64,000 bases of DNA from Mesorhizobium sp. B4-1-3 (GTDB lineage: Bacteria; Pseudomonadota; Alphaproteobacteria; Rhizobiales; Rhizobiaceae): the NCBI RefSeq assembly GCF_006439355.1, contig NZ_VFTG01000013.1, forward strand, positions 1 to 64,000. The letters are read 5' to 3'. Under the pieces are notes generated by a model. That model did no database searches. It had not been told where the DNA came from and saw nothing but the letters and a program-made list of their open reading frames with translations. Positions 14,508 through 64,000 of the stretch are shown here, piece by piece. Numbering within the stretch: the stretch's first letter is position 1; every line of letters begins with the position of its first letter. Both the position numbers and the translations under genes were made by a program.

Positions 14508-14652
14508 TCGAGACAGTCTTTCCCCGGACGGGGATGATTAAAAGGGCCTGATTTTGGGTCGATTCAACAAAGATTCACCGGCGTAGTGGTGTAGCGTGCA
14601 AATACAGGAGAACGGCGGTGCGGGATTTCGGGTAGCGCGAGGTGAGAGATCA

Positions 14653-15132: not shown

Positions 15133-15166
15133 TCTTACGCCGATCCGGTTAGATTGACGCGACACA

Positions 15167-15598
15167 CTACGGCTCGCCGTCGGCGGCGACGTCCTCGGAA
15201 ATCTCCTGCCGTAGCTTCGGCCCCTTCGCGAGGCGGCGGCCGAGCGCGGTGACGAATTGATCGTAGCGCTCGCCGGCCTTCGCACGTGCAGCCTGCGCGG
15301 CAGGCTCCGGCAAGGCCGGCGTGGTCGCGACCCAAAACCGCACGAACACCGCCAGCATCTCGACGGAGATGCCGACGTCGCGTTCCATCCGCGTCATGCG
15401 GCGATCAAGTTGGTCGAGGCGCTTGGTAATCGCGGCCTCCTGTCGCTCAGCAGCATCCGGGGAGAGGAAAGATTCGATGGCGGCTTCCGCGATCAGCGAT
15501 CGGGAGTGATCGCGTCGCGCGGCATGCTCGGCGAGCCGCCGCATCACGGCCGGATCGAGATAGACGGACAGGCGCTGTTTCTTCGCGGATTTCGTCAT
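15167..15598 (-). CDS. CopG-like ribbon-helix-helix protein
   Basis: 143 residues. The N-terminal R-L-S-V-Y-L-D-P-A-V-M-R-R-L-A-E-H-A-A-R-R and S-R-S-L-I-A-E-A-A-I segments form a ribbon-helix-helix DNA-binding domain (residues 8-50); the rest is helical with a coiled-coil-like stretch (K-R-L-D-Q-L-D-R-R-M-T-R-M-E-R-D-V-G). This CopG-type gene commonly follows traG in alphaproteobacterial ICEs and may bind oriT or the tra promoter. ATG 15598 has GAGGG at the right distance; a GTG at 15610 overlapping the traG stop is an alternative. Confidence 0.85.
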   Translation of the reverse strand: MTKSAKKQRLSVYLDPAVMRRLAEHAARRDHSRSLIAEAAIESFLSPDAAERQEAAITKRLDQLDRRMTRMERDVGISVEMLAVFVRFWVATTPALPEPAAQAARAKAGERYDQFVTALGRRLAKGPKLRQEISEDVAADGEP

Positions 15599-15606
15599 GG
15601 CGACCC

Positions 15607-17592: not shown

Positions 17593-17616
17593 GACGATGG
17601 GTCTTTCTGCGAAGGA

Positions 17617-19356: not shown

Positions 19357-19413
19357 GGCTGAGAACCCACACATCGTGCCAAGCGCAGGAAATCACGGTA
19401 AAATTGGCGTTGC

Positions 19414-41547: not shown

Positions 41548-42804
41548 TTACGACCTTGCCCAAGGTTTCGACTGCGGTCCGGCACGGTTGATCTGGTCGA
41601 CGGCGTGTTGGGCGCGATCCACATCCTCCGCACGCGCGGCGCTGGTGATGATGGCCGGCGCCGCAAGGCCGGCGGCTGCAACCGGCAGCACTGCCGCCAT
41701 GGCGCGATCGACGAGTTGCGGACCGAGATGCTCGCGGAGCAGCTCGGGGACTTTGTCGAAGGCGTTCGCCCGCAGATAGAGGGCGAAATCCTGGCGGGCC
41801 TGACCGAGCCAACGGTCGAAGTTCTCGCTCTTCTTGGGCTCTTCCGCCCATTTGTCGGCGAAGTTCTCGGCAGGGTTGACCGGGTTGGCGACCCAGGCAG
41901 CGCCGCCGCGATCCTCGATGTAGCGGTCCATCACAGTCAGGATGCTCTGCAGCGCCCCCGAGATGGTCGTCTCCTCGTTATAGGCGTGGGCCGAGAGCGT
42001 CGTGATGATGATCGAGATCGGCTTGTGTTCGCAATCCTCGGCGAACATGCAGTCGCGGTGGCGTTTCAGAAGCTGGACCGCGCGCTGGAGCGGGGTCTTG
42101 ACCTTGTAATCGGGAATTTCATCGACGCTGGCGGTGATCCGCTCGCGCTTGGCGAAGGCCTTCTTGCTCTCGGTCAGTTGGACGAGCATCCGGTTCCGGA
42201 ACCATGCGCCATAGCCGGTCGGATTGCTCTGCGGCCAATCCTCGGTCGGCTGATCGTAGTGCGGGAGGGTCTTGTCGGTGATGGCGATGGCATGCCCGCT
42301 CAGTGCGCTGTCGTGCGCCAGAGTGCGATAACCCTCCGCCAGGAGCTTGGTCTGATAGCGCTGCGCGTCAGGCAGCGCCGGCAGAATGTCCATGTGGAAT
42401 TGCGCGCCTGCAGCGTAGTTGAGGGTCCAGCAACGCCGGCCGTCGTCGGGCTTGGTCATGCCATGGGCCTTGGCATAGAGTCCGACCTCGTAGCCGACCG
42501 CATCCTTCAGGCTTTTCTGCGTGAACTCGGCCTTCGTCGCATTCAAGCGACAGACAAGATCAACATCATACTCCTCGGCGTCGGTGAGCGGCCGGGTCAC
42601 GGTACCGAGCAGGAAAGACCCCTGCGGCGAGATCGCCGGATCATAGTCGGCCAGCGTGGACTCAGGACGGTCGAGCCAGTTGCCGATCGCTTCGTAACGG
42701 GACCTCGCCTCCTCGAGCTTGGACGGCGGGATGGCGAGAGCTTCCGCCATCGCTTCCAGGATATCATCGTGCGTCTTGGCGAGGCGCTTGTCGTGCATGG
42801 TCAT
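41548..42804 (-). CDS. CD-NTase (CBASS cyclic-oligonucleotide synthase)
   Basis: 418 residues from ATG 42804, four bases after the phospholipase stop, with AGGTGAT as ribosome site. The nucleotidyltransferase core is intact: G62-S63 in P-Q-G-S-F-L-L-G-T, D80 and D82 in E-Y-D-V-D-L-V, and D139 in F-H-M-D-I-L-P-A-L. A helical C-terminal domain includes L-Q-R-A-V-Q-L-L-K-R-H-R-D. On infection it should make a cyclic di- or trinucleotide that activates the neighbouring phospholipase. The last residues are the expected target for E2-dependent modification. Confidence 0.92.
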   Translation of the reverse strand: MTMHDKRLAKTHDDILEAMAEALAIPPSKLEEARSRYEAIGNWLDRPESTLADYDPAISPQGSFLLGTVTRPLTDAEEYDVDLVCRLNATKAEFTQKSLKDAVGYEVGLYAKAHGMTKPDDGRRCWTLNYAAGAQFHMDILPALPDAQRYQTKLLAEGYRTLAHDSALSGHAIAITDKTLPHYDQPTEDWPQSNPTGYGAWFRNRMLVQLTESKKAFAKRERITASVDEIPDYKVKTPLQRAVQLLKRHRDCMFAEDCEHKPISIIITTLSAHAYNEETTISGALQSILTVMDRYIEDRGGAAWVANPVNPAENFADKWAEEPKKSENFDRWLGQARQDFALYLRANAFDKVPELLREHLGPQLVDRAMAAVLPVAAAGLAAPAIITSAARAEDVDRAQHAVDQINRAGPQSKPWARS

Positions 42805-42808
42805 GGCA

Positions 42809-43774
42809 TCACCTGTAGTGAGGGGTGAATTCCTCAGCAGGCGCGCCGAAGAATTGCGGTTGAAGGATGGGTTTCTGGATTCGCGCCTCGGCAAAGGCGC
42901 GGTCTTTCAAGCTGCGGATGCGGCTGGTGTCGTCGAGGGAATAGAAGCCATCGGGGACAGGCTGGGAGACGCGGTAAATGGCGCGCCGCTCATGCGGATC
43001 GCCCGTCAGAATCTGGGCGATGCCGAGAGAGCCATGCGACTGGCCAGCCATGAACAGGCTGGCGAGCTGCGGCGCGAGACTGGCTGCGCCATAGGCTTCG
43101 CGCACAACCTTGATGTCCTCCAGGCACCCGATGCTGAGAACGCGGATGTCTTCGGCCGGCCAGCCCAAAGTCGCCATCGCTTCGACGACCGCGATCCCGG
43201 TCGGGTTGTTGGCCCAGAGCCCGCCATCGACCAGTCCGACGTCATTGGCCGTGACGTGCTGCGCGAAATAGGTTGGCGCTGCCGCCGTCGCCATCGCGGC
43301 GTCGACCGCGAACTCCTTATAGTCGGTCCGGAGCCGGGGGTGATGGGCGGTCTTGAAGATGTAGACGCCTTGCGTCTGGGGATGCCATGCGGGGATCACC
43401 AAGCGTGTCCGAGCCTCGCCAAGTTTGCGGTCCCCCAGCACGCCATGGAGCGCGTCGCGGAGCGGCTGCGCGCTGTATTTCGGCCCCCAAAGCAACCAGC
43501 GTCCCTTACGCAGGTGCCGGCCGACCCAGCCTGCAATGCCCCCGCGCGTCTGCGCGAAGATCGCCGGCCCCTTCTCCTCGTAAAACTTGAGAATATCGGA
43601 GGCGCGCAGCCCAAGCGCCAATCCGATGGCGATGATGCCGCCGGTCGAGGTGCCGGAGATGAGATCGAAATAGCGGCCGATGGGCTGCTCAAGGTCGTGT
43701 TCGAGATTGGCGAGGAACGCCGCCGGGAATGTGCCTCGGATGCCGCCGCCATCGATAGTCAGGATACGTTTCAA
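42809..43774 (-). CDS. Patatin-like phospholipase, CBASS effector (CapV type)
   Basis: 321 residues from a TTG start with GAGGGGG eight bases upstream; the frame runs open farther upstream but over the DUF2188 gene. Patatin motifs are complete: oxyanion hole D-G-G-G-I-R-G at 8-14, nucleophile S43 in G-T-S-T-G and catalytic D183 in D-G-G-L-W-A-N-N-P. CapV-type effectors are switched on by cyclic nucleotides and degrade membrane phospholipids, killing the infected cell. Here it is followed 4 bp later by the CD-NTase. Confidence 0.92.
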   Translation of the reverse strand: MKRILTIDGGGIRGTFPAAFLANLEHDLEQPIGRYFDLISGTSTGGIIAIGLALGLRASDILKFYEEKGPAIFAQTRGGIAGWVGRHLRKGRWLLWGPKYSAQPLRDALHGVLGDRKLGEARTRLVIPAWHPQTQGVYIFKTAHHPRLRTDYKEFAVDAAMATAAAPTYFAQHVTANDVGLVDGGLWANNPTGIAVVEAMATLGWPAEDIRVLSIGCLEDIKVVREAYGAASLAPQLASLFMAGQSHGSLGIAQILTGDPHERRAIYRVSQPVPDGFYSLDDTSRIRSLKDRAFAEARIQKPILQPQFFGAPAEEFTPHYR

Positions 43775-43797
43775 CGCGCGCCCCCTCTGCTCGTCGC

Positions 43798-44067
43798 CTA
43801 GTGCTTCTGGTCCCGCGGCGGATTCGGATCGTTGCCGGGCGGCACCGTGTCGGAATCCCGCCAACGGCCGTCGCGGCCCTGAATACGAACCTCGCCGCCA
43901 CCGAGATTGCGAACCGTCTGCTTCGCGGCCTGCTCGGCGTCGCGCTGGGTGGAATGGACGCTGCTCGCGCGCTCGCTGCCGGGCGCTTTCACGGCCCAGC
44001 CCTTCGGATGCTTGGTGACGTATCTGTCGGCCACGGTGAACTCCAGCCATTGACTCGGTGACGACAT
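43798..44067 (-). CDS. DUF2188 domain-containing protein
   Basis: 89 residues. The DUF2188 pattern is visible: A-D-R-Y-V-T-K-H-P-K-G-W-A-V-K-A-P-G-S-E-R-A-S-S-V-H with later Q-R-D-A-E-Q-A-A-K-Q-T-V-R-N-L-G-G-G and I-Q-G-R-D-G-R-W-R-D-S. This family accompanies many defence and mobile genes with no known activity. It is the first gene of the CBASS operon, 23 bp before the phospholipase start, and lies across from the WYL regulator, so it may be part of the defence unit. Confidence 0.85.
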   Translation of the reverse strand: MSSPSQWLEFTVADRYVTKHPKGWAVKAPGSERASSVHSTQRDAEQAAKQTVRNLGGGEVRIQGRDGRWRDSDTVPPGNDPNPPRDQKH

Positions 44068-44078
44068 GAATATATAAA
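44050..44078 (+). promoter_or_regulatory. Sigma-70-like promoter for the WYL regulator operon
   Basis: TTGACT at 44050-44055, a 17-bp spacer, and TATAAA at 44073-44078. The predicted start (about 44085) falls inside the palindrome at 44076-44111. It is 57 bp before the GTG of the WYL gene. Confidence 0.6.
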
Positions 44079-44111
44079 CTAATCGCGTTCGTCGCAAGAT
44101 GCGTATAGTTT
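44076..44111. promoter_or_regulatory. Palindromic operator between CBASS and the WYL regulator
   Basis: Half-site AAACTAATCGC (44076-44086) and inverted half-site AAACTATACGC (read on the minus strand at 44111-44101) match at 9 of 11 positions, 14 bp apart. It overlaps the plus-strand promoter and is 9 bp upstream of the DUF2188 start, so one bound WYL dimer could control both directions. Confidence 0.6.
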
Positions 44112-44134
44112 TTATCTTCATATGAGGACCGCGA

Positions 44135-44998
44135 GTGCGTTGGGGCGTCGAACAAAGGCTTGAGTTTATTGAGTTCCGCCTGTTCTGGGAGGGCTCGATC
44201 AATCGCGCCGACATCGTGGAGTTTTTCGGCGTGTCCGTGCCGCAGGCGTCAAAAGACCTGACGCTCTATCAGGAGCGCGCGCCAGGAAACATGGACTACG
44301 ACACGCGGGCCAAGCGCTATGTCGCTGCCGAAAAGTTCGTGCTGCGGTTCCTCGACCCGGATCCTTATGTGTATCTCGCGCAGCTCCGCTCTGTGGCCGA
44401 AGGCACCGTCCCCTCCCATGATTCCTGGATCGCCGCGCTACCCCGGGCCGATGTCGCGCTGACGCCCAAGCGGGACATCGACATCAAGGTCCTGCGCCGG
44501 ATCCTCGATGCCGCGCGCGAAGGCGCGTCGGTGGACGTCTTCTATCAGTCGATGAACAAGGTGCGCCCCGACCCCATCTGGCGCCGTATCACACCGCATG
44601 CCTTCGGCTATGACGGCTTCCGCTGGCATACCCGGGCCTATTGCCACATCGAGCACAAGTTCAAAGACTTCCTCCTACCGCGCATTCTGGAGGTCGGCGC
44701 CATCGGTCAACCCGGTGCGACCGGCGAGCAGGACTGGCTCTGGAACAACTATTTCGACGTCGAGATCGGCCCGCATCCGGATCTCACCGAGAGCCAGAAG
44801 AAAGTCGTCGCCAAGGACTATGGGTTCGACCATGGCAATGGCGTGCTTTCGGTTCGCTATGCGATGCTGTTCTATGTTTTGAAGCGACTGGGTCTTCTCG
44901 GCGACGCGATAAAGCAAAACGCTCGCACGCAGCATATTGTCGCAATAAACCGCAAAGAGACCGAGGCTGCGCTGGAGCGGGCGGAGTTTCGGCAGTGA
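44135..44998 (+). CDS. WYL-domain transcriptional regulator (CapW/BrxR type)
   Basis: 287 residues from a GTG with GAGGA upstream. The N-terminal winged helix-turn-helix (R-L-E-F-I-E-F-R-L-F-W-E-G-S-I-N-R-A-D-I split by the loop, then F-F-G-V-S-V-P-Q-A-S-K-D-L) is followed by the WYL domain with R-R-I-T-P-H-A-F-G-Y-D-G-F-R-W-H-T-R-A-Y-C-H and a C-terminal WCX-like part. Proteins of this class repress CBASS (CapW) or BREX (BrxR) operons and respond to infection signals. Here it stands between a CBASS operon and a second defence operon and could control both; the next gene starts 25 bp later. Confidence 0.9.
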   Translation: MRWGVEQRLEFIEFRLFWEGSINRADIVEFFGVSVPQASKDLTLYQERAPGNMDYDTRAKRYVAAEKFVLRFLDPDPYVYLAQLRSVAEGTVPSHDSWIAALPRADVALTPKRDIDIKVLRRILDAAREGASVDVFYQSMNKVRPDPIWRRITPHAFGYDGFRWHTRAYCHIEHKFKDFLLPRILEVGAIGQPGATGEQDWLWNNYFDVEIGPHPDLTESQKKVVAKDYGFDHGNGVLSVRYAMLFYVLKRLGLLGDAIKQNARTQHIVAINRKETEAALERAEFRQ

Positions 44999-45023
44999 AG
45001 ATATTTGGGGGAAACGTCGGCTG

Positions 45024-48523
<3,500 letters not shown>

Positions 48524-48527
<4 letters not shown>

Positions 48528-51500
48528 GCACGGGGCGTCTGCTTGCAGCCAGCGTCGGCGATCCGCCGGACTATTTCCATAGAATCAGGGAGCGGGCCTC
48601 AAAGCGTTGGGATCAGCTTGAGGCAGACCCTGAGCTTGCAGGGCCTTGGCACCAACTGTTCAAGCAGGTCCAGAGCCCGCGCCATATCCTCTCCGAATTG
48701 CTCCAAAACGCCGATGACGCGGGCGCCAGCGAAGCGCGCGTATCGATCGAGAATGATCGCTTCGTGTTCGAGCACAATGGCGAGGACTTTATCGAGGCGC
48801 ACTTCGCGTCGATCTGCCGCTTTGGCTATTCCAACAAGCGCGCACTCCACACTATCGGTTTCCGCGGCATCGGGTTCAAGAGCACGTTCAGTCTTGGCGA
48901 TCGGGTCGAGCTGTTCACGCCGACCCTGGCCGTGGCCTTCGAGCGCATTCGGTTTACGGAGCCGCACTGGATCGATGGCAGACATCTCACGAACGGCAGC
49001 ACTCGGGTCGAGGTAGCCATCGCCGATTCCCTGCTGCGTCGCGAGGTTGAAAAAAACCTCGATGAGTGGCTGAAGAGTCCAGTTTCGCTGCTCTTCTTCA
49101 AGCGGATTCGCCGGCTGCAGGTCGGCGATCGCGTGGTGCATTGGCAAAGCCTCGGCCCTGGTCCGATCGCCGAGAGCGAATGGATGGGGCTCGACCAGAA
49201 GGCCGACGATCCCTTTCTGCTGGTGCGGTCGGCCGAGGAGGCTTTTCCGGCGGATGCGCTCGATGAAATCCGTAAAGAGCGCATGCTGGGAGCCGAGGAT
49301 AGCAGCGACTTTCCGCCCTGCCGGGTTGAGATCGTGCTGGGCGCAAAGGGAAGACTCTATGTCGTGCTGCCGACCGGAGTTGAAACGGCGCTTCCCTTCG
49401 CCTGCAATGCCCCTTTCATTCAGGATCCGGCGCGCCTCAAGATCAAGGATCCGGAGACCTCGCCGACCAATCGCTGGCTCCTGAACCGAGCGGGCGTACT
49501 CGCCGCCAGCGCGATGATGGAATGGCTCGAACAGGCCAAGACCAGCGCACGGGACCGGACGGGCGCCTATGGTCTGCTGCCTGACGTTGACCGTGAGGCG
49601 ACCACGCTCGAAGGGTCATGCGGCGCGATCGTCGAGCTTGCGTTTGATGGTGCGATCGATGATCGAGCGATCCTGCTGACTGAGAATGGCGAACTGGTCG
49701 CCGCCGGGGGCGCGATCGCCGTTCCGCAGCCGATATTCGACATCTGGCCAGCCGACCAGGCCTTGGCCTTGCTCGACACCAAGTCACGGCCGGCGTTGTG
49801 CCAGCATGTGTCGGTCAAGGATCGGACCAAGCTCGTTCGCTGGGGCCTGGTCGAGGAGTTTTCGAAGGCCGAGCTGCTTCAGCGGTTGCGCAGCAATCAT
49901 CTGCCTCGGCCGTCGACTTGGCGGCACCTGTTGAATCTCTGGTCCTACATCGCTGCCGAGGTGACAGGTTGGCAGTATCAGGACGCCGACGATCTGCGGA
50001 TCGTGCCGGTCCAGGGCAAGGAGGTGCTTTACGCAGCGTCCGAGATCGTTCGGCTCGGTGAGAAAAAGCTTCTCCAATCGGAGGAGGATTGGGAATTCCT
50101 CGCCGGTCATCTGATCGTCCTGAACCAGAATTGGACCCGTTTCCTCGCCGAGCAGCGCCGCGACAAGGCCGAGGGTGGTGGCCGAAGCGACCCGGTTCAG
50201 GCCGCCTTCGCGGTGCTGAAGGAAATTGGTCTGGATGAAACAAGCGACGTCAATGCCGTGATCGAGCGGGTCGCCGCCGATTATTTCAGCTCAGCGCAGC
50301 CGAAGCTGGCGGAGTGCGTCCAGCTTGCTCAGATCGCGGCCAAGCTCGGCGTTACCATCGGCGAATCCTTCCGATATGCTTGCGCCGACCTGAAGCTGCG
50401 GGCGATCGGGAAGGGCGTCCTATTTGATGAAAATGGCTCGTTAGAGGAACTGCTGCCGGAGAGTGTTCAGCAGACGCACCTCGTGCACGCCGATTATGTG
50501 GCAACCTTCAAATCCTGCTCGCGGGAAGATTGGCTTCGCTGGGTATCTTCCGGCCGTTCGGGCCTTCAGACATTCGCACCGCTCGTCCAGAGGCGAGGCA
50601 GCGTCTATGGGCGTCAGCGTGCCACTGCGGAGGCGCAGGCACGCGGGCAGCGCCAACCACTTTCCTATTCCTACGTCACCGACAGCTTCGTCATCGACGA
50701 TTGGGACTTCCCCGCCGACTATTGGCGGCATTGGGAGGTGCTGTCGAAGAGCGATCCGGGCCTCTGGGCCAAGGTCGCCGGGAAGGTCCTGGAACAGCGG
50801 GAGGCCTATTGGTCGCGCGCTTCGAGCGCTCGCCTGTCACAGGTGGCCACCACCGGATCGACGCGATCGGTCACTTCGGAGCCGTTGCTGACGGATTGGT
50901 TACTGAAGCTGCGGACCAAGCCCTGCCTCCCTGACATGCGCAGCATGATCCAGGTTCCGGCGGACCTGGTGCGCAGGAGCCCCGAGACGGAGGCGCTGAT
51001 CGACGTCGAGCCCTTCGTGCATGGCTTGCTCGACCGGGAAACGACACGCCCGCTGCTCGACCTGCTTGGCGTCCGCAGCACGCCGAGCGGCCCCGGACGC
51101 CTGCTCGATCGGCTGCGCGCGCTTGCGAAATCGGACAAGGCTCCGGCGCATGAGGTCGAGAAGTGGTATCGCCGCCTGGACCAAATGCTCGACGGCTGCT
51201 CGACCGCCGACGCCCAAAATCTCAGGAACGCTTTCAAGACCGAGAAGCTGATCCTCGCCCAGGACGGGACCTGGGTGACGTCCGGGGGAGTCTTTCTGGC
51301 CGGGGACGAGGAAGACGTTCCTGGCGCGGCGGTCATCCGGTCCTCTGTGCTCGATCTCAGTCTGTGGCGGCGCATCGGTGTTGCTGAACGGCCCTCCGCA
51401 GACCTGGCGCTGCAATGGCTCGGCACGCTGGGCTCGGGGAAGGCGCTGTCGGCTGACGACGCCCGCCGGGTTCGTTCGCTGCTGGTGCGATACCCGACCC

Positions 51501-52768
51501 GCATCTGGGAAGAGTGCGGCCATTGGGTGAATCTGCTGGGCGAATGGGTGCCGGCCGACACGCTCGCCTATGCGTTGAGCATGCAGACCCTTTTCCGGTG
51601 GAGCCACCTGCACGATTGGGTCAAGCGTAAGACCGCCGACCTTCAGCGGCTACCGGCGGAGACCGTGCAGGCGCCGCCGTTCTCGGCGCTTCCGGCGCTG
51701 TCGGATCTTGTCGAAGAGCGGTTCAACCAGCCATCGTTGCTCGCGCGACTCGAAGACCGGCGCGCCTGGCTGACGGCGTTCGGAACCCAGCTTGGGCGGA
51801 TCGAGCTTGCCGATCCCGCTGAGACCGAGCGAGTGCGGACGCTGGCCGAAGCGATCGCCGCGACGAGCTGGGTCCAGGCGCCCAAGCTGGAGGTCATTCC
51901 CTATCTCGACGGTGTGCCCGCCGGCACGGCGCGGCTCACGGACATCCTGTGGCTCGACCGAAAGCTGTTCGTCAGCCCCTTGACCAAAGCCAAGCTCGCC
52001 AAGCGCGTGCCGGAGGAGATCGGCAGGAGTCTGAACGCGGACATTCGTGCAGCGCTGGCCTATGCGTTCGAGCGGTCGCCCGAAGACATCAAGGAATATC
52101 TTGAGGAGAACTTCACGCTCGGCCCCGAGCAGCGAGCGGTAGCGCCGGTTGTCGAGACCCAGCCCGTAGCCGGGCCGGTCGTTGACGAAGCGGTGGGCGC
52201 GCTCCGCGAGGATGCCGGCGAGTACGCAGAGTCGATCGGCGATGCCCCTGTCGCGGAAGAGCCTGATCTAACCGAGGACGATGAACCCGCGGCCCAGCCA
52301 GAGGCCGAGGAGCCATTGGAAAACCCTGAAGGCGGCTTGCTGGCATCAGAGCCCGTAACCCGGTCGCGCCCGCCCGCGAAGCCGCCACGACCGAACGTGA
52401 TGTCGCGTTTCGCGCTTGCCCAGGGCTACAAGGCCGACGGCGACGATCGCTTCTTCCATGCGGACGGAAGCTGGATCGGCCGCGCCAACGGAGCGAGGTT
52501 TCCGTGGGAGCGCCGCTCGGCGGGCGGCGAGGTCCTGCGTCACTATTACCCGAAGGAACATTGCCTGGAGCACGAGCCGCTCCAGATCGAGGCCGACGTG
52601 TGGGGTCTGCTCGACCAGAAGCCCGACGTCTATTCCTTCATTCTCGTCAACCCCGAGAGCGAGCCGGTTGAGATGACGGGCGCCCGCCTGCGTGCGTTGC
52701 GCGACGACGGCGAAATCACCATTCACCCCGCAACATACAGGCTCGTCCTGTCGGAGGCATCAACGTGA
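48524..52768 (+). CDS. Large GHKL (sacsin-type) ATPase protein
   Basis: 1414 residues; ATGA overlap with the helicase. The N-terminal HSP90/sacsin-like ATP-binding fold is seen in H-I-L-S-E-L-L-Q-N-A-D-D-A-G-A (residues 55-68, with the Mg-binding Asn) and G-F-R-G-I-G-F-K-S (113-121). A long middle region has no recognisable domain. Residues about 1200-1290 are an acidic, proline-rich linker, and the last 120 residues form a compact region with F-F-H-A-D-G-S-W-I-G-R. Sacsin-type ATPases recur in prokaryotic defence islands; the mode of action is unknown. It could be a sensor or a clamp driven by ATP. Confidence 0.85.
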
Positions 52769-54021
52769 CGGATGCCCAGGTGTCTCATTTGGGTGCCGTC
52801 TCCAGGCGGGTCGTTCGCGCGTTCAACGGGCGCAGCAATCTGCCGGTCCATGAATTGGCGAAAGCTAAAGTGGAGAAGCCCCACGGCCGTACCCGACCGC
52901 TTCCCAAAGCATCGGGCAACGTGCAGTTCAGTGCTTGGCGCCTGGCCCATGCGGTCAAGAAGGCTGATTGCTTGCGATGGCAGACCGCGCCGATCCGTTG
53001 GGTAGGGGCTGCCGGGTTTCTTCTTGAAAACGGCCACCTGTTCGATTGGACCACGAGCGAGTGGTGCCTGAACGACGGCATGTCGAGTTTCTATGCCGAT
53101 TTCTCCGGCTCCGGCTTGGCGGGACGGATTGCGCAAGGCATGGCGCTGCTGCTCTTGGAAGACAAGGGCTACGCCTATGTCGGTCGCTTCGAAACCGAGT
53201 GGAGGCAACGCGCGGCCACGCAAAATAGGCAATGGCCCGCAGGCAAAACGAAGGCGCCGGACTTCATCGCCGAGAACGGGCAAAAGCAATGGGTGCTCGC
53301 TGAATCCAAGGGCGGGTTTTCGTCTCCGGGAAAGAAACCACCCATCAAAGGCGCGTTGAAGGACGGACTGACCCAGCTCGACGGTTGGGACAAGTATATC
53401 AATCCCCAGCCCATCAAGAGCTTTGCGATCGGCACGTTCCTGCGGGAGGCTGGTGATACTCTTGGCGAGACATCGCTTGTCGCCTTCGTCGATCCCGAGC
53501 CGGAGGTTCCCGAAAACCCCGTCGAGTTCCCCCGTGACGCGGTTCGCCGGGCCAATTATGCCTCGTGGTTATCCCTGATGGGATTGGACGAGGCGGCTGC
53601 TCGGCTGCGAGTGGGCGAAGGGGAGCCCCAGCGATACGAGATTCCTCTCCTTACCGTGGGCGAGCGCCAATATGCGGTGAGCATCGCGTCGGTGATGCCG
53701 AGGCATCCCGACCTATCCAGCCGGGAATTCGGGCGTGATTGGCCATTTTGGCCCTTTCCTTGGCTCCGGGACGGCATCGACATCGAACTTGTCGGCCTCG
53801 ATCTCAAAGTCCTGCGCGCCCTGAGTTCGGCGACGCTATCGGTTGATGCTTCAGAGCTGATGGCGCTGGAGCCGTCGGAGCGGCGAGACACGCCTGCCGA
53901 TCTGGACGGCGGGACATTTTACGGCAGTGTTTTTTCGGATGGTTCCTTGCTGGGCGAGCTGAGGCTGCGGCGTCGGGGAGAGCCGTTTCCGGATATCGAG
54001 TGGACCGAGGTGGAACTGTGA
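52765..54021 (+). CDS. PD-(D/E)XK-like nuclease candidate
   Basis: 418 residues from a GTG that overlaps the ATPase stop by 4 bp. I do not recognise a named family. The segment K-A-P-D166-F-I-A-E-N-G-Q-K-Q-W-V-L-A-E180-S-K182-G-G has the D-(x)n-E-x-K spacing and the hydrophobic strand of the PD-(D/E)XK nuclease fold, and the C-terminus is basic then acidic. No other catalytic motif is seen. As the only nuclease-like gene of the operon it is the best candidate for the cleaving subunit beside the methylase. Confidence 0.6.
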   Translation: MTDAQVSHLGAVSRRVVRAFNGRSNLPVHELAKAKVEKPHGRTRPLPKASGNVQFSAWRLAHAVKKADCLRWQTAPIRWVGAAGFLLENGHLFDWTTSEWCLNDGMSSFYADFSGSGLAGRIAQGMALLLLEDKGYAYVGRFETEWRQRAATQNRQWPAGKTKAPDFIAENGQKQWVLAESKGGFSSPGKKPPIKGALKDGLTQLDGWDKYINPQPIKSFAIGTFLREAGDTLGETSLVAFVDPEPEVPENPVEFPRDAVRRANYASWLSLMGLDEAAARLRVGEGEPQRYEIPLLTVGERQYAVSIASVMPRHPDLSSREFGRDWPFWPFPWLRDGIDIELVGLDLKVLRALSSATLSVDASELMALEPSERRDTPADLDGGTFYGSVFSDGSLLGELRLRRRGEPFPDIEWTEVEL

Positions 54022-56831
54022 CGGCTTACAAAAAGAAACTCATCGAAGTCGCGATCCCGCTTGAGGCGATCAACGCTGCCTCTGCGCGAGAGAAGTCGAT
54101 CCGGCACGGACATCCGTCCACCCTACATCTGTGGTGGGCGAGGCGCCCCCTGGCAGCATGCCGAGCTGTGCTGTTCGCTCAGCTCGTTGATGATCCATCA
54201 AGCCATCCGGACAAATTCCCAACCGAGGAGGCCGTTGAAGCGGAGCGGCAAAGACTGTTCAGAATCATCGAGGAACTCGTCGTTTGGGAAAATTCGACAA
54301 ACGACGAGGTGCTCGAGCGCGCACGAATCGAAATTCGCAAGAGCTGCGGGGACGAACTTCCTGCGATCTATGACCCATTTTCAGGTGGTGCGTCGATCCC
54401 ACTTGAAGCGCAACGCCTTGGCCTTCCATCTTTTGGTTCTGACCTCAACCCCGTCGCGGTGATGATCGGCAAGGCGATGGTCGAGATCCCGCCGCGCTTC
54501 AAAAGCAATCCGCCAGTTCATCCCGGAGGACGGGACCGAATTCACTATCGAAACGCTGAGGGGTTAGCCGAGGACATCAGATATTACGGCGAATGGGTGC
54601 GAGAGGAAGCGTTTCGGCGCATTAGCCACCTGTATCCCCAGGTCGACCTGCCGAAAGAGCTAGGGAGTGGGAAGGCCACGGTCGTCGCATGGATTTGGGC
54701 GCGAACAGTGCCGAGCCCGGATCCCGCCTTTGCCGACACACGCGTGCCAATTGCGTCCAGCTTTCTGCTGAGCCTCAACGCCGGCAAAGAAGCGTGGATC
54801 GAGCCGATTGTCGACAAGCGCGCCAAATCCGTCACCTACAAGGTACGAAGCGGGGGGACAAAGGCACAACTTGAAAAGGCAAAGAAGGGCACCAAAGCTG
54901 GCCGTGCTGTCTTTAACTGCATTTTCTCGGATGCCCCGATAACAGGCGACTACATCGATAGGCAAGCCGCCGAAGGCAAGATGGGCAAGACGTTATTGGC
55001 CATCATTGCAGAAGGTCCGAGCGGGCGGCGCTATTTGTCAGTGGATTCGCTGAGCGAGCAAGCAGCAACCGTCGCGGCGGAAGCAGCCGTAGCTAAGTTG
55101 GACTTGGGCTACCTCGATATACCCTGTCGGGGAACGTTCGCAAGTAACGCTCAAGGTCGTCGATATGGCTTTAATACCTTTAAGGATTACTTCATTGAAC
55201 GTCAGCTCGTCGCCTTAAATACGTTCGGCGAGTTGGTTCGCGAGGTGCGCTCAAAGATCGAGAAAGATGCTCTAGCCGCAGGTCTCTCGTCCGACGGGAT
55301 GCCACTTCGCGAAGGAGGAGATGGCGCCAAGGCCTACGCAGAAGCCGTAAGCGTGTATTTGGCATTTGCCATTGATCGCGTGGCGGATGCCGGCAGCTCA
55401 GTCGCGACGTGGTCGTCCTCCGGGTTCATTCGATTCACCTTCGCACGCCAAGGCATCGCTATGACGTGGGATTTCGCTGAGTGTAACGTATTCAGTGATA
55501 GCACCGGCAATTTCTTGGGCGCCGTAGAATGGGTATGGAAGGCCCTTCTAGGATTAAGTTCGAATGCGGCAGGAAAAATTGTTCAGCATGATGCGCAGAC
55601 TGTCCAAATACCTGAGAACGCCGTAATCTCGACGGACCCACCCTATTACGACAACATTGGCTACGCCGATTTATCTGACTATTTCTATGTTTGGTTGCGA
55701 TGGAATATAAAGGATGTATTTCCTGCGCAGAGCAGCACGATTACTGTTCCGAAGGCGGAGGAGTTGGTTGCTACGCCGTATAGGCATGGAGGAAACGACG
55801 AAGCAGAGAAGTTTTTCCTCGATGGAATGACGCTGGCTATCTCAAATCTGGCGCTGCAGGCTTCGAGTCAGTTTCCCGCGACCATATACTACGCGTTTAA
55901 GCAGAGCGAAGTGGAGCAGGAAGGGCTATCGTCGACAGGATGGGCGACGTTTATCCAAGCCGTAATTTCAGCAGGGTACTCGATCGTCGGAACTTGGCCC
56001 GTCCGGACAGAACGCGCTGCACGCACAGTCGCGTCGGGTACGAATGCCCTTGCCAATTCGGTCGTCCTCGTCTGCCGCAGGAAGGAAGCCGCCGCCGAAG
56101 TTATCACGCGCGCGGAGTTCATACGTGCGCTGAAACGCGAGTTGCCCCCGGCAATCGCCGAGCTTCAGGCCGCCAACATCGCCCCAGCCGATATGCCGCA
56201 ATCGGCGATCGGACCCGGAATGGGCGTTTTCTCGCGCTACCAGGCCGTACTGGAAAGCGACGACAATCCGATGAGCGTGAAGACTGCACTCCAGCTCATC
56301 AACAAGGAGCTGGACGAGTACCTTGGGGGCATCCAGGGCGAGTTCGACGCCGATACCCGCTTTGCGATCACTTGGTTCGAGCAGAACGGGCTAAAAGCCG
56401 GTGAGTACGGCACCGCCAACAGCATCGCGACTGCGCGCGGCATCTCGGTCGATAGCGTCAAACATGCCGGGATCGTGGAAAGTGCCGCCGGTAAGGTCCG
56501 CATCCTGACGCGCGACGAGCTTGATGATGATTGGGAACCAGAGAGCGACGGCCACCTGACGGTGTGGGAGTGCCTCCAGCATTTGGTCCGTCTGCACGAA
56601 AAGGACGGCATCTCCCACGAAACCGCTGTGCTGCTGAAGAAGATCAACACCCAGGCCGAGGCCGTGAAGGATCTCGCCTACTGCCTCTACGACATCAGCG
56701 CCAACAAGCGAAAGGATGCGAAGGAGGCCACGGCCTACAACGCGCTGATTGCCGACTGGACCGAGCTGACGAAGGCTGCGGCGGCCATCCACGACACGAG
56801 CGGGGATCGTCAGACCCGGCTGGATATTTGA
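54018..56831 (+). CDS. DUF1156 adenine-specific DNA methyltransferase (COG1743)
   Basis: 937 residues from GTG 54018 (GTGA overlap; an 18-bp longer frame exists). The N-terminal K-K-K-L-I-E-V-A-I-P-L-E-A-I-N-A-A-S-A-R-E-K-S and H-L-W-W-A-R-R-P-L-A-A-C-R-A segments are DUF1156. Motif I lies at I-Y-D-P-F-S-G-G-A-S-I-P-L near 117 and the catalytic D-P-P-Y-Y-D near 538, separated by a large insertion. It should methylate adenine and mark self DNA. The family is known from predicted restriction-like antiphage gene sets together with DUF499, which follows here after 13 bp. GC content drops visibly in 54.9-55.9 kb compared with the neighbours. Confidence 0.92.
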   Translation: MTAYKKKLIEVAIPLEAINAASAREKSIRHGHPSTLHLWWARRPLAACRAVLFAQLVDDPSSHPDKFPTEEAVEAERQRLFRIIEELVVWENSTNDEVLERARIEIRKSCGDELPAIYDPFSGGASIPLEAQRLGLPSFGSDLNPVAVMIGKAMVEIPPRFKSNPPVHPGGRDRIHYRNAEGLAEDIRYYGEWVREEAFRRISHLYPQVDLPKELGSGKATVVAWIWARTVPSPDPAFADTRVPIASSFLLSLNAGKEAWIEPIVDKRAKSVTYKVRSGGTKAQLEKAKKGTKAGRAVFNCIFSDAPITGDYIDRQAAEGKMGKTLLAIIAEGPSGRRYLSVDSLSEQAATVAAEAAVAKLDLGYLDIPCRGTFASNAQGRRYGFNTFKDYFIERQLVALNTFGELVREVRSKIEKDALAAGLSSDGMPLREGGDGAKAYAEAVSVYLAFAIDRVADAGSSVATWSSSGFIRFTFARQGIAMTWDFAECNVFSDSTGNFLGAVEWVWKALLGLSSNAAGKIVQHDAQTVQIPENAVISTDPPYYDNIGYADLSDYFYVWLRWNIKDVFPAQSSTITVPKAEELVATPYRHGGNDEAEKFFLDGMTLAISNLALQASSQFPATIYYAFKQSEVEQEGLSSTGWATFIQAVISAGYSIVGTWPVRTERAARTVASGTNALANSVVLVCRRKEAAAEVITRAEFIRALKRELPPAIAELQAANIAPADMPQSAIGPGMGVFSRYQAVLESDDNPMSVKTALQLINKELDEYLGGIQGEFDADTRFAITWFEQNGLKAGEYGTANSIATARGISVDSVKHAGIVESAAGKVRILTRDELDDDWEPESDGHLTVWECLQHLVRLHEKDGISHETAVLLKKINTQAEAVKDLAYCLYDISANKRKDAKEATAYNALIADWTELTKAAAAIHDTSGDRQTRLDI

Positions 56832-56844
56832 GGGGGAACGGGAC

Positions 56845-60141
<3,297 letters not shown>

Positions 60142-61521
60142 ATGAGCGGAGCCGGGCCTATCGAGCGCGACCTGATCTTCATCTCCAAGGCGACGCCTGG
60201 CGATGACCAGTTCGTGCTGTGGCTCGCGCCGCGGCTCGAAGCCGCTGGCTACAAGGTCTTTGCCGACATCTTCGATCTCGATGCCGGTGACGAATGGCGC
60301 GGCAAGCTCACCGCAGCCCTTCAGACGCGGGCGATCAAGATGCTGCTGTGCTGCAGCGACGAGACGCTCGCCAGAAGGGGAGTTCGCGAGGAGATCGCCA
60401 TCGCGGAAGACCTGACGAAGCAACTCCCCGATCCCAATTTCATCATCCCCCTCAAGATTCGCACATTCCAGAAGCTCTTCGGCATCGGCGGCCTTCAGTA
60501 TATCGACTTCGAGAGCGGCTGGGCCAAGGGACTGGCGAGTCTGCTCAAGTCGCTCGAAAAGCAGCAGGTGCCGAAGGCTGGCGGCGGTATCATTCAGCCC
60601 GAATGGTACGCCCATCTCCGCCGGCGCGCCGTAGAGATCGAGGCGGCTCCCGAGGTCCTAACATCCAACTGGCTCCGGATCCTACGGATGCCGGACAAGC
60701 TAAATCATCTGGTGCCGCGCAACCGGGCCACTGAGGCTTTGCTGCGCAAGCTCGGCGCGTCCTTTGAGTTCCCGATGGCCGAATTCGGCGACGGTTTCCT
60801 GACCTTCGCCAGCCCGTTCGACCTGACAGAACATTTCGAGCGGGTGGGGCCGTTTCGCGTCGAGCGTGACTTCGATGTTCTCGATCTGCTCGAGAACGGG
60901 TCATCGAATGCGGGGATCGAAAGCGGGGATGCCCGGTCGATCATGATGAATCTCCTGCGGCAGGCGTGGGAGAAGCATTGCGCCCGCGAAGGGTTTCTTG
61001 CCCACACCTTCTCGAGCGGACTGTCCTTCCATGTCGGCGAGGGCAAGTTGGGCCTCAAGAAGCGTGTTTCATGGGGGCGCCAGGGTCAGAGTCGCAACTC
61101 GATGCTGCGCGGCGTCGCCCGCAAGAAGATCTGGGAATATGGCGTCAGCGTCATTCCCAGCCTATTTCCCTATCCCCATATGCGCCTCAAGGGCCGCGTG
61201 CTGTTCTCCGACATCGGGGAGCGCAACAAGCCGATCGCCATTCCGGACACGAAAATCCAGTTTCGCCTGCGGCGCTCGATCTGTTCTAGCTGGCGCAACA
61301 AGGCATGGCACGGGCGCGTGATGGCGTTCATGGAGTTGTTGGCCGGCGACAGTCCTTATGTCGATCTTGCCGTCGGCTCGGGCGGCAGCATCACGCTCGA
61401 CGCGATGCCGATCCAGTTCACGGCGCCCGTGACCGCGCGCCAGACCAACCAGCTCGGCGAGGATGCGGAAGAAGCCGATTCCACAACGCTCGGCGGCCAC
61501 TTCGAGGAGGAGGACGCTTGA
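60142..61521 (+). CDS. TIR-APAZ protein of a SPARTA system
   Basis: 459 residues. The TIR domain (1-140) has D-L-I-F-I-S-K-A at strand A, E-A-A-G-Y-K-V-F-A-D then the acidic loop, and the candidate catalytic Glu at 83 or 84 in G-V-R-E-E-I-A-I-A. The APAZ domain (about 150-440) resembles PAZ-like partners of short Argonautes; S-I-C-S-S-W-R-N-K-A-W-H near 388 is a conserved-looking block. In SPARTA, guide-directed binding of invading DNA by the Argonaute makes this TIR hydrolyse NAD+, halting the infected cell. The ATG abuts the DUF499 stop with no gap. Confidence 0.88.
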   Translation: MSGAGPIERDLIFISKATPGDDQFVLWLAPRLEAAGYKVFADIFDLDAGDEWRGKLTAALQTRAIKMLLCCSDETLARRGVREEIAIAEDLTKQLPDPNFIIPLKIRTFQKLFGIGGLQYIDFESGWAKGLASLLKSLEKQQVPKAGGGIIQPEWYAHLRRRAVEIEAAPEVLTSNWLRILRMPDKLNHLVPRNRATEALLRKLGASFEFPMAEFGDGFLTFASPFDLTEHFERVGPFRVERDFDVLDLLENGSSNAGIESGDARSIMMNLLRQAWEKHCAREGFLAHTFSSGLSFHVGEGKLGLKKRVSWGRQGQSRNSMLRGVARKKIWEYGVSVIPSLFPYPHMRLKGRVLFSDIGERNKPIAIPDTKIQFRLRRSICSSWRNKAWHGRVMAFMELLAGDSPYVDLAVGSGGSITLDAMPIQFTAPVTARQTNQLGEDAEEADSTTLGGHFEEEDA

Positions 61522-63074
61522 TCGAATTTTCCGAAAAATCCGTTCCGGTCCTCTATATTCCGGAACCACCGCTCGGATTTGGGCATGGGCAGGCTTCGGA
61601 TCATCCGAAGGACGGCCTCACGCTCTATGGGCCGGCGTCGACGCCCGATCGCCCGCAGATCACGATCGGCGCGATCGGTACCAAACATGGCCTGGATCTC
61701 CTGCGCCGTTGGCTCGAGGCGATCAGCAATCCCGTCGCGATTCCGGCTCGCGGCAAGCGCGACAAAGAGTTTCGGCTGCACCTGTCCGACTTTCCCGGTC
61801 TCGAAGAGGCGTTCGGGATGCGCGCAGATCCGAGCGCCATGATTGCATGTGAGATCGATCCTGCGGACATCCGTGCCGCGATTGCGATCGAGAACCATCA
61901 CGAGGCGGTGGCCGCGACGACCAAGCTGTTCATCGACCCAATCGAGCGTCACGCGAAAAACGAGGAGCGGACGGTCGATGTCTGGATCTTCGTGGTTCCG
62001 GAGATCGTGTTCGAGACCTGCCGGCCGGTTGCGGGGCAGCGCCGCAAGGTCGAGCTCCTCAAGGGGGAGTTGTCCAGACGCCAGAAAGGGCGTGCCGACC
62101 TTCCGTTGCTGGCCGGCGTCATTGATGACACGCTTGAGGCGGTGTTCGACGACATCCCCGACTTCCACCGTCAGATCAAAGCGAAGCTTTTGAAGCTGGG
62201 CATGACATCCCAGCTCATTCGTGAGACGACCCTTGCCCCCGAGGAGTTCGTGAACAAGGCGGGATATCCGAAACGCGGCACTCAGGATTCCGCTACCGTC
62301 GCCTGGAACCTGGCGACAGGCCTGTTCTACAAGACGCAGGCCGAGCCGCCATGGAAGATTGCCGGCATGCGACCGGGCGTCTGTTACGTCGGCTTGGTCT
62401 TCAAACTCCTTCCCAACCATCCCGACAATCACGCTTGCTGTGCAGCGCAGATGTTCCTGAGCGAAGGGGATGGCGTTGTCTTTCGCGGGGCGAACGGACC
62501 CTGGCAGACCGAAAACAGGGAATTTCACCTCAGCGATCTGGCGGCGGGGAAGCTGATCAAGACGGTTCTGGACACCTACAAGCAGCGTTTCGGGGCTTAT
62601 CCGAAAGAGCTGTTCATTCACGGCCGGACCAAGTTCAACGACGCGGAATGGGAGGCCTTCAGCAAGGCCGCGCCCGATGGCACCAATATCGTGGGCGTGC
62701 GTATCCAGTCGACCCATGGTGAGACCAAGCTCTTCCGCGATGGCGATTATCCATGCCTTCGCGGCACGGCAGTCCAGCTCGGTAACAAAGATGCTTATGT
62801 GTGGACCACGGGATATGCGCCACGCATCGACACCTATATCGGCCCGGAAACGCCGAACCCTCTGTTCGTGACTGTGCTGCGTGCGAGCGGTGAATTTCCG
62901 GCCATCGAGACCGTGCTGGCCGACATCTTGGGTCTCACGAAAATCAACTATAACGCCTGCAATTTCAGCGACGGGCTTCCTGTCACCATTCGTTTTGCGG
63001 ACAAGGTCGGCGAAGTGCTGACCATGGGAAGCGCCGCCGGCGCTGAGCGCCAGCCGTTCAAATTCTATGTCTAA
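61518..63074 (+). CDS. Short prokaryotic Argonaute (MID-PIWI) of SPARTA
   Basis: 518 residues from TTG 61518, overlapping the TIR-APAZ stop by 4 bp and preceded by GAGGAGGAGGA. A longer frame to 61305 lies inside the TIR-APAZ gene and is rejected. The length and the absence of N and PAZ domains match short pAgos. The MID/PIWI halves include V-A-W-N-L-A-T-G-L-F-Y-K, Y-V-G-L-V-F-K-L, P-K-E-L-F-I-H-G-R and the terminal K-I-N-Y-N-A-C-N-F-S-D-G-L-P-V-T-I-R-F-A-D. Short pAgos lack slicer activity and act as guide-loaded sensors with the APAZ partner. Confidence is high because both subunits are adjacent. Confidence 0.88.
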   Translation: MIEFSEKSVPVLYIPEPPLGFGHGQASDHPKDGLTLYGPASTPDRPQITIGAIGTKHGLDLLRRWLEAISNPVAIPARGKRDKEFRLHLSDFPGLEEAFGMRADPSAMIACEIDPADIRAAIAIENHHEAVAATTKLFIDPIERHAKNEERTVDVWIFVVPEIVFETCRPVAGQRRKVELLKGELSRRQKGRADLPLLAGVIDDTLEAVFDDIPDFHRQIKAKLLKLGMTSQLIRETTLAPEEFVNKAGYPKRGTQDSATVAWNLATGLFYKTQAEPPWKIAGMRPGVCYVGLVFKLLPNHPDNHACCAAQMFLSEGDGVVFRGANGPWQTENREFHLSDLAAGKLIKTVLDTYKQRFGAYPKELFIHGRTKFNDAEWEAFSKAAPDGTNIVGVRIQSTHGETKLFRDGDYPCLRGTAVQLGNKDAYVWTTGYAPRIDTYIGPETPNPLFVTVLRASGEFPAIETVLADILGLTKINYNACNFSDGLPVTIRFADKVGEVLTMGSAAGAERQPFKFYV

Positions 63075-63082: not shown

Positions 63083-64000
63083 TCAGGCAGCTTTGCGAGT
63101 CGTGATCTCCTTGCAATAGCCTTCATCGCTCACGGCACTCTGGAGAAACCGATCAAGAGCTGCACGCCGAGATTTGCGGTCCAAGGCGTAGGCAGTCTGC
63201 TTGAACTCAACTCCGTCCAGGAGCCCTTGAATGTAGCCAGCGATCGTATCCGCAGCCATGATGAGCGCGGTGTCGAGCGTGTGAATATATTTGCTCGTCA
63301 CCGAGCCCTTCGAATGCCCGACCAGCGCGGCGATCGTCACCTCGGTAAATCCGAGATCGTTGGCGATGCTGGCAAAGCTGTGACGCAGGACGTGCGGCGT
63401 GACGCCAGCGAGCGGGCTGCCCTTGAAGATCTGGTCCCAATGGTTCGGGAAGCTGCCGAACGCATTGTCCTCGCCCTGACCGGGGAAGACATAGGTGCCC
63501 GTGGCGGCCTTGCGGCGCTCCTCCAGATATTCGACGACGGGCAGCCCGATAGGACGAATGGACTCGCCCTCCTTGCTGTCCACCAGGCGCATGCAGCTCG
63601 CGTCTGTGTCGGCCTCGATCCACATCAGCGAGATCATTTCCGAGCGGCGGCAGCCGGTGAGCGCGATCTGGCGGATGATGTCGACGGTCATGACGTACTT
63701 GTCGTTCGCCGCAGCGTCGCCAAGCATCTGGCCGAGTGTACGATACTCCGCCTCGGTCAGCCGGCGATTCCGGACTTTGTCCTTCGGCTTCTTGATGCCG
63801 TGCGCGGGATTGCTCTCGATGATGCCAGCGTCAATGGCATAGGTGAGGATGCCGCCGAGCAAGCCGACCGTTCGGGTCGCCGTGCCCGCGCCGCCGCGCA
63901 CGATGGCCTTGCCGCGCAACTTCTTCGTCTTGACGGCAACGCGCGTCTTGCCGGCCATGATGTCCTTCAAGACCTTGTTGATGTCGGCCTTGGTGAGATC
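63083..64000 (-). CDS. Tyrosine recombinase/integrase, cut by the window edge
   Basis: 305 residues to the edge; the frame is open to position 64000 so the N-terminal DNA-binding part is outside. The catalytic domain is complete: Arg in L-T-G-C-R-R-S-E-M-I-S-L, H-V-L-R-H-S-F-A-S box II, and G-H-S-K-G-S-V-T-S-K-Y-I-H with the nucleophile Tyr. It resembles phage-like and ICE integrases. It faces the SPARTA operon tail to tail with an 8-bp gap. It may be the integrase of this element; no att site is visible in the window. Confidence 0.92.
   Translation of the reverse strand, partial: DLTKADINKVLKDIMAGKTRVAVKTKKLRGKAIVRGGAGTATRTVGLLGGILTYAIDAGIIESNPAHGIKKPKDKVRNRRLTEAEYRTLGQMLGDAAANDKYVMTVDIIRQIALTGCRRSEMISLMWIEADTDASCMRLVDSKEGESIRPIGLPVVEYLEERRKAATGTYVFPGQGEDNAFGSFPNHWDQIFKGSPLAGVTPHVLRHSFASIANDLGFTEVTIAALVGHSKGSVTSKYIHTLDTALIMAADTIAGYIQGLLDGVEFKQTAYALDRKSRRAALDRFLQSAVSDEGYCKEITTRKAA

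What the first reader, a model, noticed from the sequence alone, without database searches (positions are those of the whole stretch)
44135..63074. 19-kb single-strand operon fusing a DUF1156/DUF499 restriction-like system to SPARTA
Eight genes run in one direction with almost no gaps: WYL regulator, DrmD-like helicase, sacsin-type ATPase, PD-(D/E)XK-like protein, DUF1156 methylase, DUF499 ATPase, TIR-APAZ, short Argonaute. Junctions are overlaps of 4 bp (four cases), a direct abutment at 60141/60142, or gaps of 13 and 25 bp. The families DUF1156 and DUF499 are known together as predicted antiphage genes, and SPARTA is known alone; I know of no description of the two as one translationally coupled unit. 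A model: the methylase/helicase/nuclease set senses or cuts unmodified DNA and feeds guide or signal to the Argonaute, with TIR-driven NAD+ loss as fallback.
Basis: partly seen in the sequence, partly recalled or inferred. Interest (0 to 1): 0.9.

Follow-up and report, generated by a model that had tools for sequence, protein, structure and literature searches.

The report
Hma restriction operon with SPARTA appended
A known bacterial anti-virus operon (Hma) carries a second known immune module, the Argonaute-based SPARTA, joined flush to its end; the pairing recurs in other bacteria and seems to have arisen twice, but it most likely stacks two self-sufficient defences rather than making one new machine.

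Summary
In detail: eight same-strand genes at 44135-63074 with exactly the junctions described. The core is a Hma system (HmaA/HmaB/HmaC; "Type-1 BREX-Related" in a 2026 paper), with a sacsin-type ATPase and a nuclease-like protein between hmaA and hmaB. A whole SPARTA (TIR-APAZ plus short Ago) starts at the base after the hmaC stop.

The pairing is not a one-off: 7 of 74 close SPARTA loci with a whole TIR-APAZ gene have hmaC directly upstream, six in Proteobacteria and one in an acidobacterial MAG with a very different HmaC. The Ago tree favours two separate recruitments. SPARTA is under purifying selection there, and DNA similarity to SPARTA-free Hma operons stops at the hmaC stop: it behaves as a gene-precise cassette.

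Against one machine: the other 67 of 74 SPARTA loci have no HmaC, none of 32 further HmaC regions has SPARTA, and other defence genes (Druantia III, a reverse transcriptase) also follow hmaC. Defence genes embedded in Hma operons are already in print; my searches found no Hma-SPARTA description.

Verdict: operonic stacking, probably co-expressed; new variant of a known kind.

The parts
44135..44998 (+). WYL-domain regulator, first gene of the run
   Evidence: Pfam WYL 28.5 bits, cut-off 21.8; 85-89% identical relatives stand before hmaA in L142, L143, L144, L146 and L147
45024..48527 (+). HmaA: SNF2 helicase with a C-terminal NOV_C (PD-(D/E)XK-type) domain
   Evidence: PADLOC HmaA 1594.8 bits over 4-1165; NOV_C 76 bits; GAGKT, DEAH and a D...ExK motif with E1090 present
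48524..52768 (+). Sacsin-type (HSP90-like) ATPase, accessory gene in the hmaA-hmaB slot
   Evidence: NCBIfam NF047352 76.6 bits, cut-off 50; PADLOC TmtA 177.7 bits, partial; the only full-length plasmid relatives, 3 records, lie in records that also hold HmaC
52765..54021 (+). Putative PD-(D/E)XK nuclease, accessory gene in the hmaA-hmaB slot
   Evidence: No family hit; D166, E180 and K182 invariant in 3 of 3 aligned relatives; a 64% identical gene stands between hmaA and hmaB in L161
54018..56831 (+). HmaB: DUF1156 adenine methylase with a variable middle part (likely target recognition)
   Evidence: PADLOC HmaB 1172.2 bits; DUF1156 111.7 bits; DPPY at 540 and block identities
56845..60141 (+). 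HmaC: Swt1-type HEPN domain plus DUF499 AAA+ ATPase
   Evidence: PADLOC HmaC 944.1 bits over 167-1096; HEPN_Swt1 94.1 bits and DUF499 102.6 bits; RNKLSH motif at 93 and CLILIDE at 358
60142..61521 (+). TIR-APAZ of SPARTA, starting at the base after the hmaC stop
   Evidence: PADLOC Aga_TIR 495.7 bits; aligns with solved TIR-APAZ chains over 9-451 of 459, Glu84 with catalytic Glu77
61518..63074 (+). Short Argonaute of SPARTA, TTG start overlapping the TIR-APAZ stop by 4 bp
   Evidence: PADLOC pAgo_I 682.4 bits; aligns with solved short pAgo over 11-518 of 518

Best explanation
A stacked defence operon. The core is a HEPN-type Hma (Type-1 BREX-Related) restriction-like system: HmaB marks self DNA by adenine methylation, HmaC scans, HmaA (helicase-nuclease) attacks unmarked DNA, and the HEPN domain of HmaC may be a suicide RNase. 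Two accessory genes (sacsin-type ATPase, putative nuclease) sit in a variable slot between hmaA and hmaB. A whole SPARTA was placed gene-precisely behind hmaC, so that it is read from the same transcript, probably under the WYL regulator, and helped by translational coupling. SPARTA most likely works there as it does alone: guide RNA, recognition of invader DNA, NAD(P)+ destruction by the TIR domain, an abortive second line when an invader survives Hma. Shown here: gene content, junctions, recurrence in two Hma lineages, purifying selection, modular exchange, both systems apart elsewhere. Inferred: one transcript, WYL control, division of labour, and every enzymatic activity.
For: Family matches of all core proteins and of both SPARTA proteins to solved SPARTA chains, with the catalytic TIR glutamate. 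Junction TAG|ATG, no + strand promoter-like or terminator-like site listed there. HmaC directly upstream in 7 of 74 SPARTA loci: 0 bp in L044-L047 and L049, 1 bp in L059, 113 bp in L043. A single clade of the linked Agos is rejected, p-AU 2.8e-28. dN/dS 0.041-0.109 (TIR-APAZ) and 0.033-0.096 (Ago) among the linked copies. DNA similarity with SPARTA-free operons L146 and L147 ends at the hmaC stop. HmaC and SPARTA differ in silent divergence. Each half usually stands without the other. Druantia III genes and a Drt1a-like reverse transcriptase also follow hmaC.
Against: No expression or phage data. Two separate recruitments to the same place could mean a specific functional link rather than loose stacking. 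Six of the 12 tightly coupled upstream ORFs among 74 SPARTA loci are HmaC, though five of these six belong to one closely related clade. The Trp46 of the studied SPARTA, needed for its NADase activity, aligns with Arg53 here, with a Trp one residue before, so full TIR activity is not certain.
Confidence: 0.7

Rival explanations
1. One integrated machine: the Hma helicase-nuclease makes fragments or exposes single-stranded DNA that arm SPARTA, so that SPARTA is the suicide arm of Hma.
For: Abutting junction kept in five relatives; two separate recruitments behind hmaC; purifying selection on SPARTA in the linked state.
Against: 67 of 74 SPARTA loci and 32 of 32 fetched HmaC regions lack the other half; HmaC 93.7% identical exists without SPARTA (L146); the middle of HmaB changes between L045 and L047 while SPARTA stays; other systems use the slot.
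Confidence: 0.15
2. Hitch-hiking: SPARTA landed behind hmaC in a defence hotspot of a mobile element and is carried along without regulatory or functional coupling.
For: Conjugation genes on the same contig and an integrase beside Ago; relatives share flanking backbone genes; L050 looks like a remnant that lost Hma and TIR residues 1-130 but keeps an open Ago; only one of the two recruitments is seen in more than one genome.
Against: Two recruitments in the same order and orientation; exact abutment kept in five relatives; SPARTA under purifying selection; no space for a promoter between the genes, although one inside hmaC is not excluded.
Confidence: 0.12

Closest known systems
Hma (PADLOC 2021, PMC8565338) = Type-1 BREX-Related system (PMC12839542, 2026); HEPN-DUF499 restriction-modification systems (PMC3710099, 2013)
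   Same: HmaA, HmaB and HmaC models all match; HEPN-DUF499 fusion, DUF1156 methylase, helicase with C-terminal NOV_C/DUF3883 nuclease domain
   Different: Sacsin-type and nuclease-like genes inserted between hmaA and hmaB; WYL gene in front; SPARTA behind hmaC
SPARTA (TIR-APAZ plus short Argonaute; PMC11156904)
   Same: Both proteins align with solved SPARTA chains; catalytic Glu kept
   Different: Lies flush behind hmaC; TIR-APAZ without the N-terminal extension seen in 34 of 74 relatives; Trp46 not matched in register
Defences embedded in Hma operons (Payne et al. 2024 preprint, known to me only through the papers citing it)
   Same: A second defence inside or beside a Hma operon
   Different: As cited there, embedded between Hma genes (for example Septu); here a complete SPARTA appended after hmaC
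DISARM (DrmD helicase)
   Same: Related SNF2 helicase (398.5 bits)
   Different: HmaA model scores about four times higher; NCBIfam DrmD cut-off not reached; no DrmB or DrmC hit among the nine proteins scanned (of protein 2's 54 hits only the best 25 were shown)

Membership tests
Hma / Type-1 BREX-Related system | Helicase (HmaA), methylase (HmaB) and ATPase (HmaC) in one operon | tested here: met
   1594.8, 1172.2 and 944.1 bits, same strand and order A-B-C
Hma / Type-1 BREX-Related system | Helicase with C-terminal active PD-(D/E)XK-type domain (79% of Type-1 taxa) | tested here: met
   NOV_C domain with D...ExK motif; activity itself not tested
Hma / Type-1 BREX-Related system | Anti-phage activity | not testable with these tools
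   Needs phage challenge
SPARTA | TIR-APAZ gene directly followed by a short (MID-PIWI) Argonaute | tested here: met
SPARTA | Catalytic TIR glutamate | tested here: met
   Glu84 aligns with Glu77 of 8fex_A
SPARTA | Trp46 of the TIR domain, needed for NADase activity in the studied complex | tested here: inconclusive
   Arg53 in register, Trp52 beside it in the alignment; role of Trp46
SPARTA | Guide-dependent NAD(P)+ hydrolysis | not testable with these tools
   Biochemical
DISARM | DrmD above the curated cut-off | tested here: not met
   383 bits against 610
Tiamat-like (PADLOC TmtA; the name Tiamat is recalled) | Full-length match of the sacsin-type protein to TmtA | tested here: inconclusive
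   177.7 bits, best stretch 50-358 of 1414
Hma-embedded defence | Gene lies between Hma genes | tested here: not met
   SPARTA lies after hmaC; only the sacsin-type and nuclease-like genes lie between hmaA and hmaB
One Hma-SPARTA machine | Each half usually found with the other | tested here: not met
   7 of 74 SPARTA loci have HmaC; 0 of 32 further HmaC regions have SPARTA

The most novel reading that the evidence does not exclude
SPARTA was recruited twice, independently, behind hmaC because Hma action makes SPARTA's trigger: HmaA-driven unwinding and cutting of unmethylated invader DNA yields the single-stranded targets or guides that arm the Argonaute. The Hma methylation mark would then decide indirectly when the TIR domain fires, giving a restriction-licensed abortive infection system.
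Probability: 0.15. Interest if true: 0.82.

Novelty: new variant of a known kind. Interest (0 to 1): 0.46.

Why it matters
How SPARTA is regulated and where its guides come from are, as far as I recall, open questions. A recurrent, gene-precise coupling to a methylation-based system offers a natural test of whether self/non-self marking can license an Argonaute. It also suggests that the 3' end of Hma operons is a docking slot that takes whole defence systems (SPARTA, Druantia III, a reverse transcriptase), which helps in finding new ones and in predicting which defences are expressed together.

Tried and rejected
DISARM: rejected, DrmD scores far below HmaA and below the curated cut-off. One-off chance juxtaposition: rejected, the pairing recurs. 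A single origin of all linked SPARTAs: rejected by the AU test, with the caution that the group was known from an earlier tree. Assembly artefact: unlikely, the arrangement is on a 142-kb contig and in seven other assemblies. Leads that gave little: viral contigs gave one SPARTA relative, 40% identical (L189), and four HmaC relatives, none with a TIR-APAZ or Ago hit in its stretch (L123-L126). Acidobacteriota: 15 of 396 genomes have a related Ago, G394 (the genome of L059) included; of the other 14, two also have HmaC (G1011, G1142), on different contigs, so adjacency is undecided there. Plasmids: 102 records with an Ago relative and 137 with an HmaC relative; no accession is shared between the 60 listed of each, compared by eye. 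Fold of the fourth gene: unusable model. Relatives of the fourth gene: one weak plasmid hit outside any Hma operon and none in viral contigs.
Full report
Observation. Ago starts at TTG 61518 and HmaB at GTG 54018, each overlapping the previous stop by 4 bp. HmaC's stop (60139-60141) abuts the ATG of TIR-APAZ. No + strand promoter-like or terminator-like site was listed from 60.0 to 60.3 kb; that scan finds little more than shuffled sequence does.

What the genes are. HmaA, HmaB and HmaC match their PADLOC models with 1594.8, 1172.2 and 944.1 bits, HmaC over residues 167-1096. HmaA carries a C-terminal NOV_C domain and HmaC an N-terminal Swt1-type HEPN domain. The HEPN survey of 2013 noted this architecture (PMC3710099, passages), PADLOC named it Hma in 2021 (PMC8565338, passages), and a 2026 paper calls it Type-1 BREX-Related (PMC12839542: abstract, outline, section 29, part 1 of section 35, and passages). 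DrmD scores far lower and misses its cut-off. The third gene is a sacsin-type ATPase. The fourth has no family hit but an invariant D...ExK in 3 of 3 aligned relatives. TIR-APAZ and Ago match solved SPARTA chains over nearly their whole length. The catalytic TIR glutamate is kept (Glu84, aligned with Glu77 of 8fex_A). Trp46, whose change to Ala nearly abolishes NADase activity in the studied complex (PMC11156904, passages), is not matched in register: Arg53 aligns with it and a Trp stands one residue before.

Recurrence. A scan of the genome collection with an alignment of 12 Agos gave 543 relatives; the best 80 were kept. TIR-APAZ is whole in 74; set aside are L050, L056, L074, L076, L091 and L116. 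HmaC lies directly upstream in 7 of 74: L043-L047, L049 and L059. Six have Agos 94-97% identical to the window's and come from Brucella pecoris, Xanthobacter autotrophicus, a Phenylobacterium MAG and three other proteobacterial MAGs. L059 is an acidobacterial MAG with Ago 62% and HmaC 36% identical, a 941-residue HmaC that matches the window's only from residue 159, and a gap of 1 bp to TIR-APAZ. WYL-HmaA-sacsin-HmaB-HmaC-SPARTA is complete in L044, L045 and L047 when the neighbouring stretches L142, L143 and L144 are read with them; the fourth gene is missing in these three. In 8 same-genus and 8 same-family genomes listed by the phylum survey HmaC was not found, as expected for a mobile element.

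Origins. In the Ago tree of 85 rows the Hma-linked label needs three changes; I read them as two gains and one loss (L050). In a careful tree of 27 rows, with L050 counted as linked, holding the linked rows together is rejected, p-AU 2.8e-28; the group was known from the first tree, which the test warns about. The nearest relatives of the two linked groups, L048 and L067, have no HmaC in their stretches. In the HmaC tree the window's nearest relative is L146, which lacks SPARTA, and the SPARTA label needs four changes.

A gene-precise cassette. DNA similarity between the window and the SPARTA-free operons L146 and L147 runs to the hmaC stop and ends there; in L043 about 113 unrelated bases come before SPARTA resumes at its start codon. 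Silent divergence differs on the two sides: window-L044 dS is 0.888 in HmaC, 0.357 in TIR-APAZ and 0.520 in Ago; window-L043 is 0.783, 0.307 and 0.340 (Nei-Gojobori). Third-position identity is higher in SPARTA than in HmaC in the 7 pairs compared, z from 2.3 to 8.9. Against this: the pair L045-L047, which seems to share one history, also shows a small rise (z 2.6), so part of it may be codon constraint. dN/dS among the linked copies is 0.041-0.109 for TIR-APAZ and 0.033-0.096 for Ago.

Modularity on both sides. Between hmaA and hmaB different relatives hold no gene, the sacsin gene, the nuclease-like gene (L161), both (the window), or other ORFs. The middle of HmaB falls to 27% identity in one 50-column block while its last 250 residues stay at 80-96% to the window; between L045 and L047 it falls to 52% while HmaC is 99.3% and HmaA 98.6% identical. 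Ten next-gene products behind hmaC or DUF499 genes at nine loci were scanned: Druantia III DruH and DruE (26 bp, Rhodobacter plasmid L148; DruH matches over its N-terminal part only), a Drt1a-like reverse transcriptase cut by the contig end (58 bp, L172), a DpdF/PsyrT-like helicase (5 bp, L175), a 2051-aa protein with a double-PIN-linked HTH domain (21 bp, L182, behind a distant DUF499 protein), a LysR regulator, a carbamoyltransferase and three without hits. These gaps assume the earliest start codon.

How often. In 385 genomes of the class the short-Ago family was found in 14 and HmaC in 17; both in 3. They are adjacent in the window's genome; in G065 and G091 they lie on different contigs, which are short in G065, so adjacency there is not excluded. 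HmaC was found in 22 of 398 genomes of the phylum. I fetched 32 of the HmaC places from these two surveys (13 and 19; the window's own and a few places at contig ends, such as G137, G316, G343, G344, G454 and G525, were not fetched). None of the 32 has a TIR-APAZ or Ago match; several end soon after hmaC, some are only distant DUF499 proteins, and L160 is the same place as L146. Only 12 of 74 SPARTA loci have a co-directional ORF of at least 100 aa ending within -30 to +20 bp of a possible TIR-APAZ start; six of the 12 are HmaC, five of them from one clade. Two of the rest (L088, L093) lie inside the longer TIR-APAZ reading frame and are probably chance.

Literature. PMC12988326 (passages) and PMC12255303 (passages) cite a 2024 preprint on defences embedded in other immune systems, with Hma-embedded candidates and Septu in Hma; the preprint is not held. 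Searches that joined Hma, DUF499, DUF1156 or BREX terms with SPARTA or Argonaute terms and searches on short-Ago neighbourhoods and on embedding showed no description of Hma with SPARTA. I saw listings, and passages of PMC12839542, PMC3710099, PMC6299218, PMC12988326 and PMC12629846. This covers open-licence PMC only.

Judgement. The best reading is operonic stacking: SPARTA as a co-expressed abortive second line behind a restriction-like first line. Integration into one machine is possible, but nothing here shows it, and the modular, mostly separate occurrence speaks against it.

Noticed in passing
window 41548-44155, - strand: CD-NTase-like gene (DncV-like/SMODS) and patatin-like phospholipase, divergent from the WYL gene: a CBASS-like pair; relatives of both lie at the same place in L142 beside the Brucella pecoris Hma operon.
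   Followed up: partly
L028 (G000:C1:505001-525000), about 9052-11957: The window's genome has a second SPARTA (Ago 42%, TIR-APAZ 30% identical) with no Hma protein hit in the 20 kb read.
   Followed up: partly
L148 16001-28654: Rhodobacter sp. CZR27 plasmid: hmaC followed after 26 bp by Druantia III genes druH and druE.
   Followed up: partly
L080 2395-7586: A distant HmaB-like methylase (84 bits; DUF1156 just under its cut-off) overlaps the TIR-APAZ reading frame of a SPARTA by up to 20 bp, with no HmaC on the 8.7-kb contig: a possible methylase-SPARTA pair.
   Followed up: partly
L094 3344-11554: A PDC-S37 gene (1881 bits) ends 10 bp before the earliest TIR-APAZ start: SPARTA behind another defence candidate.
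   Followed up: no
L081-L090, L092-L102, L104, L108-L110, L112-L114, L117-L122: In 34 of 74 loci the TIR-APAZ reading frame is 174-230 codons longer at its N-terminus than in the window; its nature was not examined.
   Followed up: no
L050 9015-11557: A short Ago 94% identical to the window's with only residues 131-459 of TIR-APAZ and no Hma, beside a conjugative-element gene: it looks like a deletion remnant.
   Followed up: partly
L024 3348-6662, - strand (G000:C5, downstream of the window): A 1104-codon ORF with DPACGSG and NPPW methylase-like motifs seen by eye; perhaps another restriction-modification gene.
   Followed up: no
window 4877-19374 and 63083-64000, - strand: trb-type conjugation genes, TraG and a DUF3363 relaxase, and a tyrosine recombinase whose stop lies 8 bp beyond the Ago stop, convergent with it: a mobile element setting.
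   Followed up: partly
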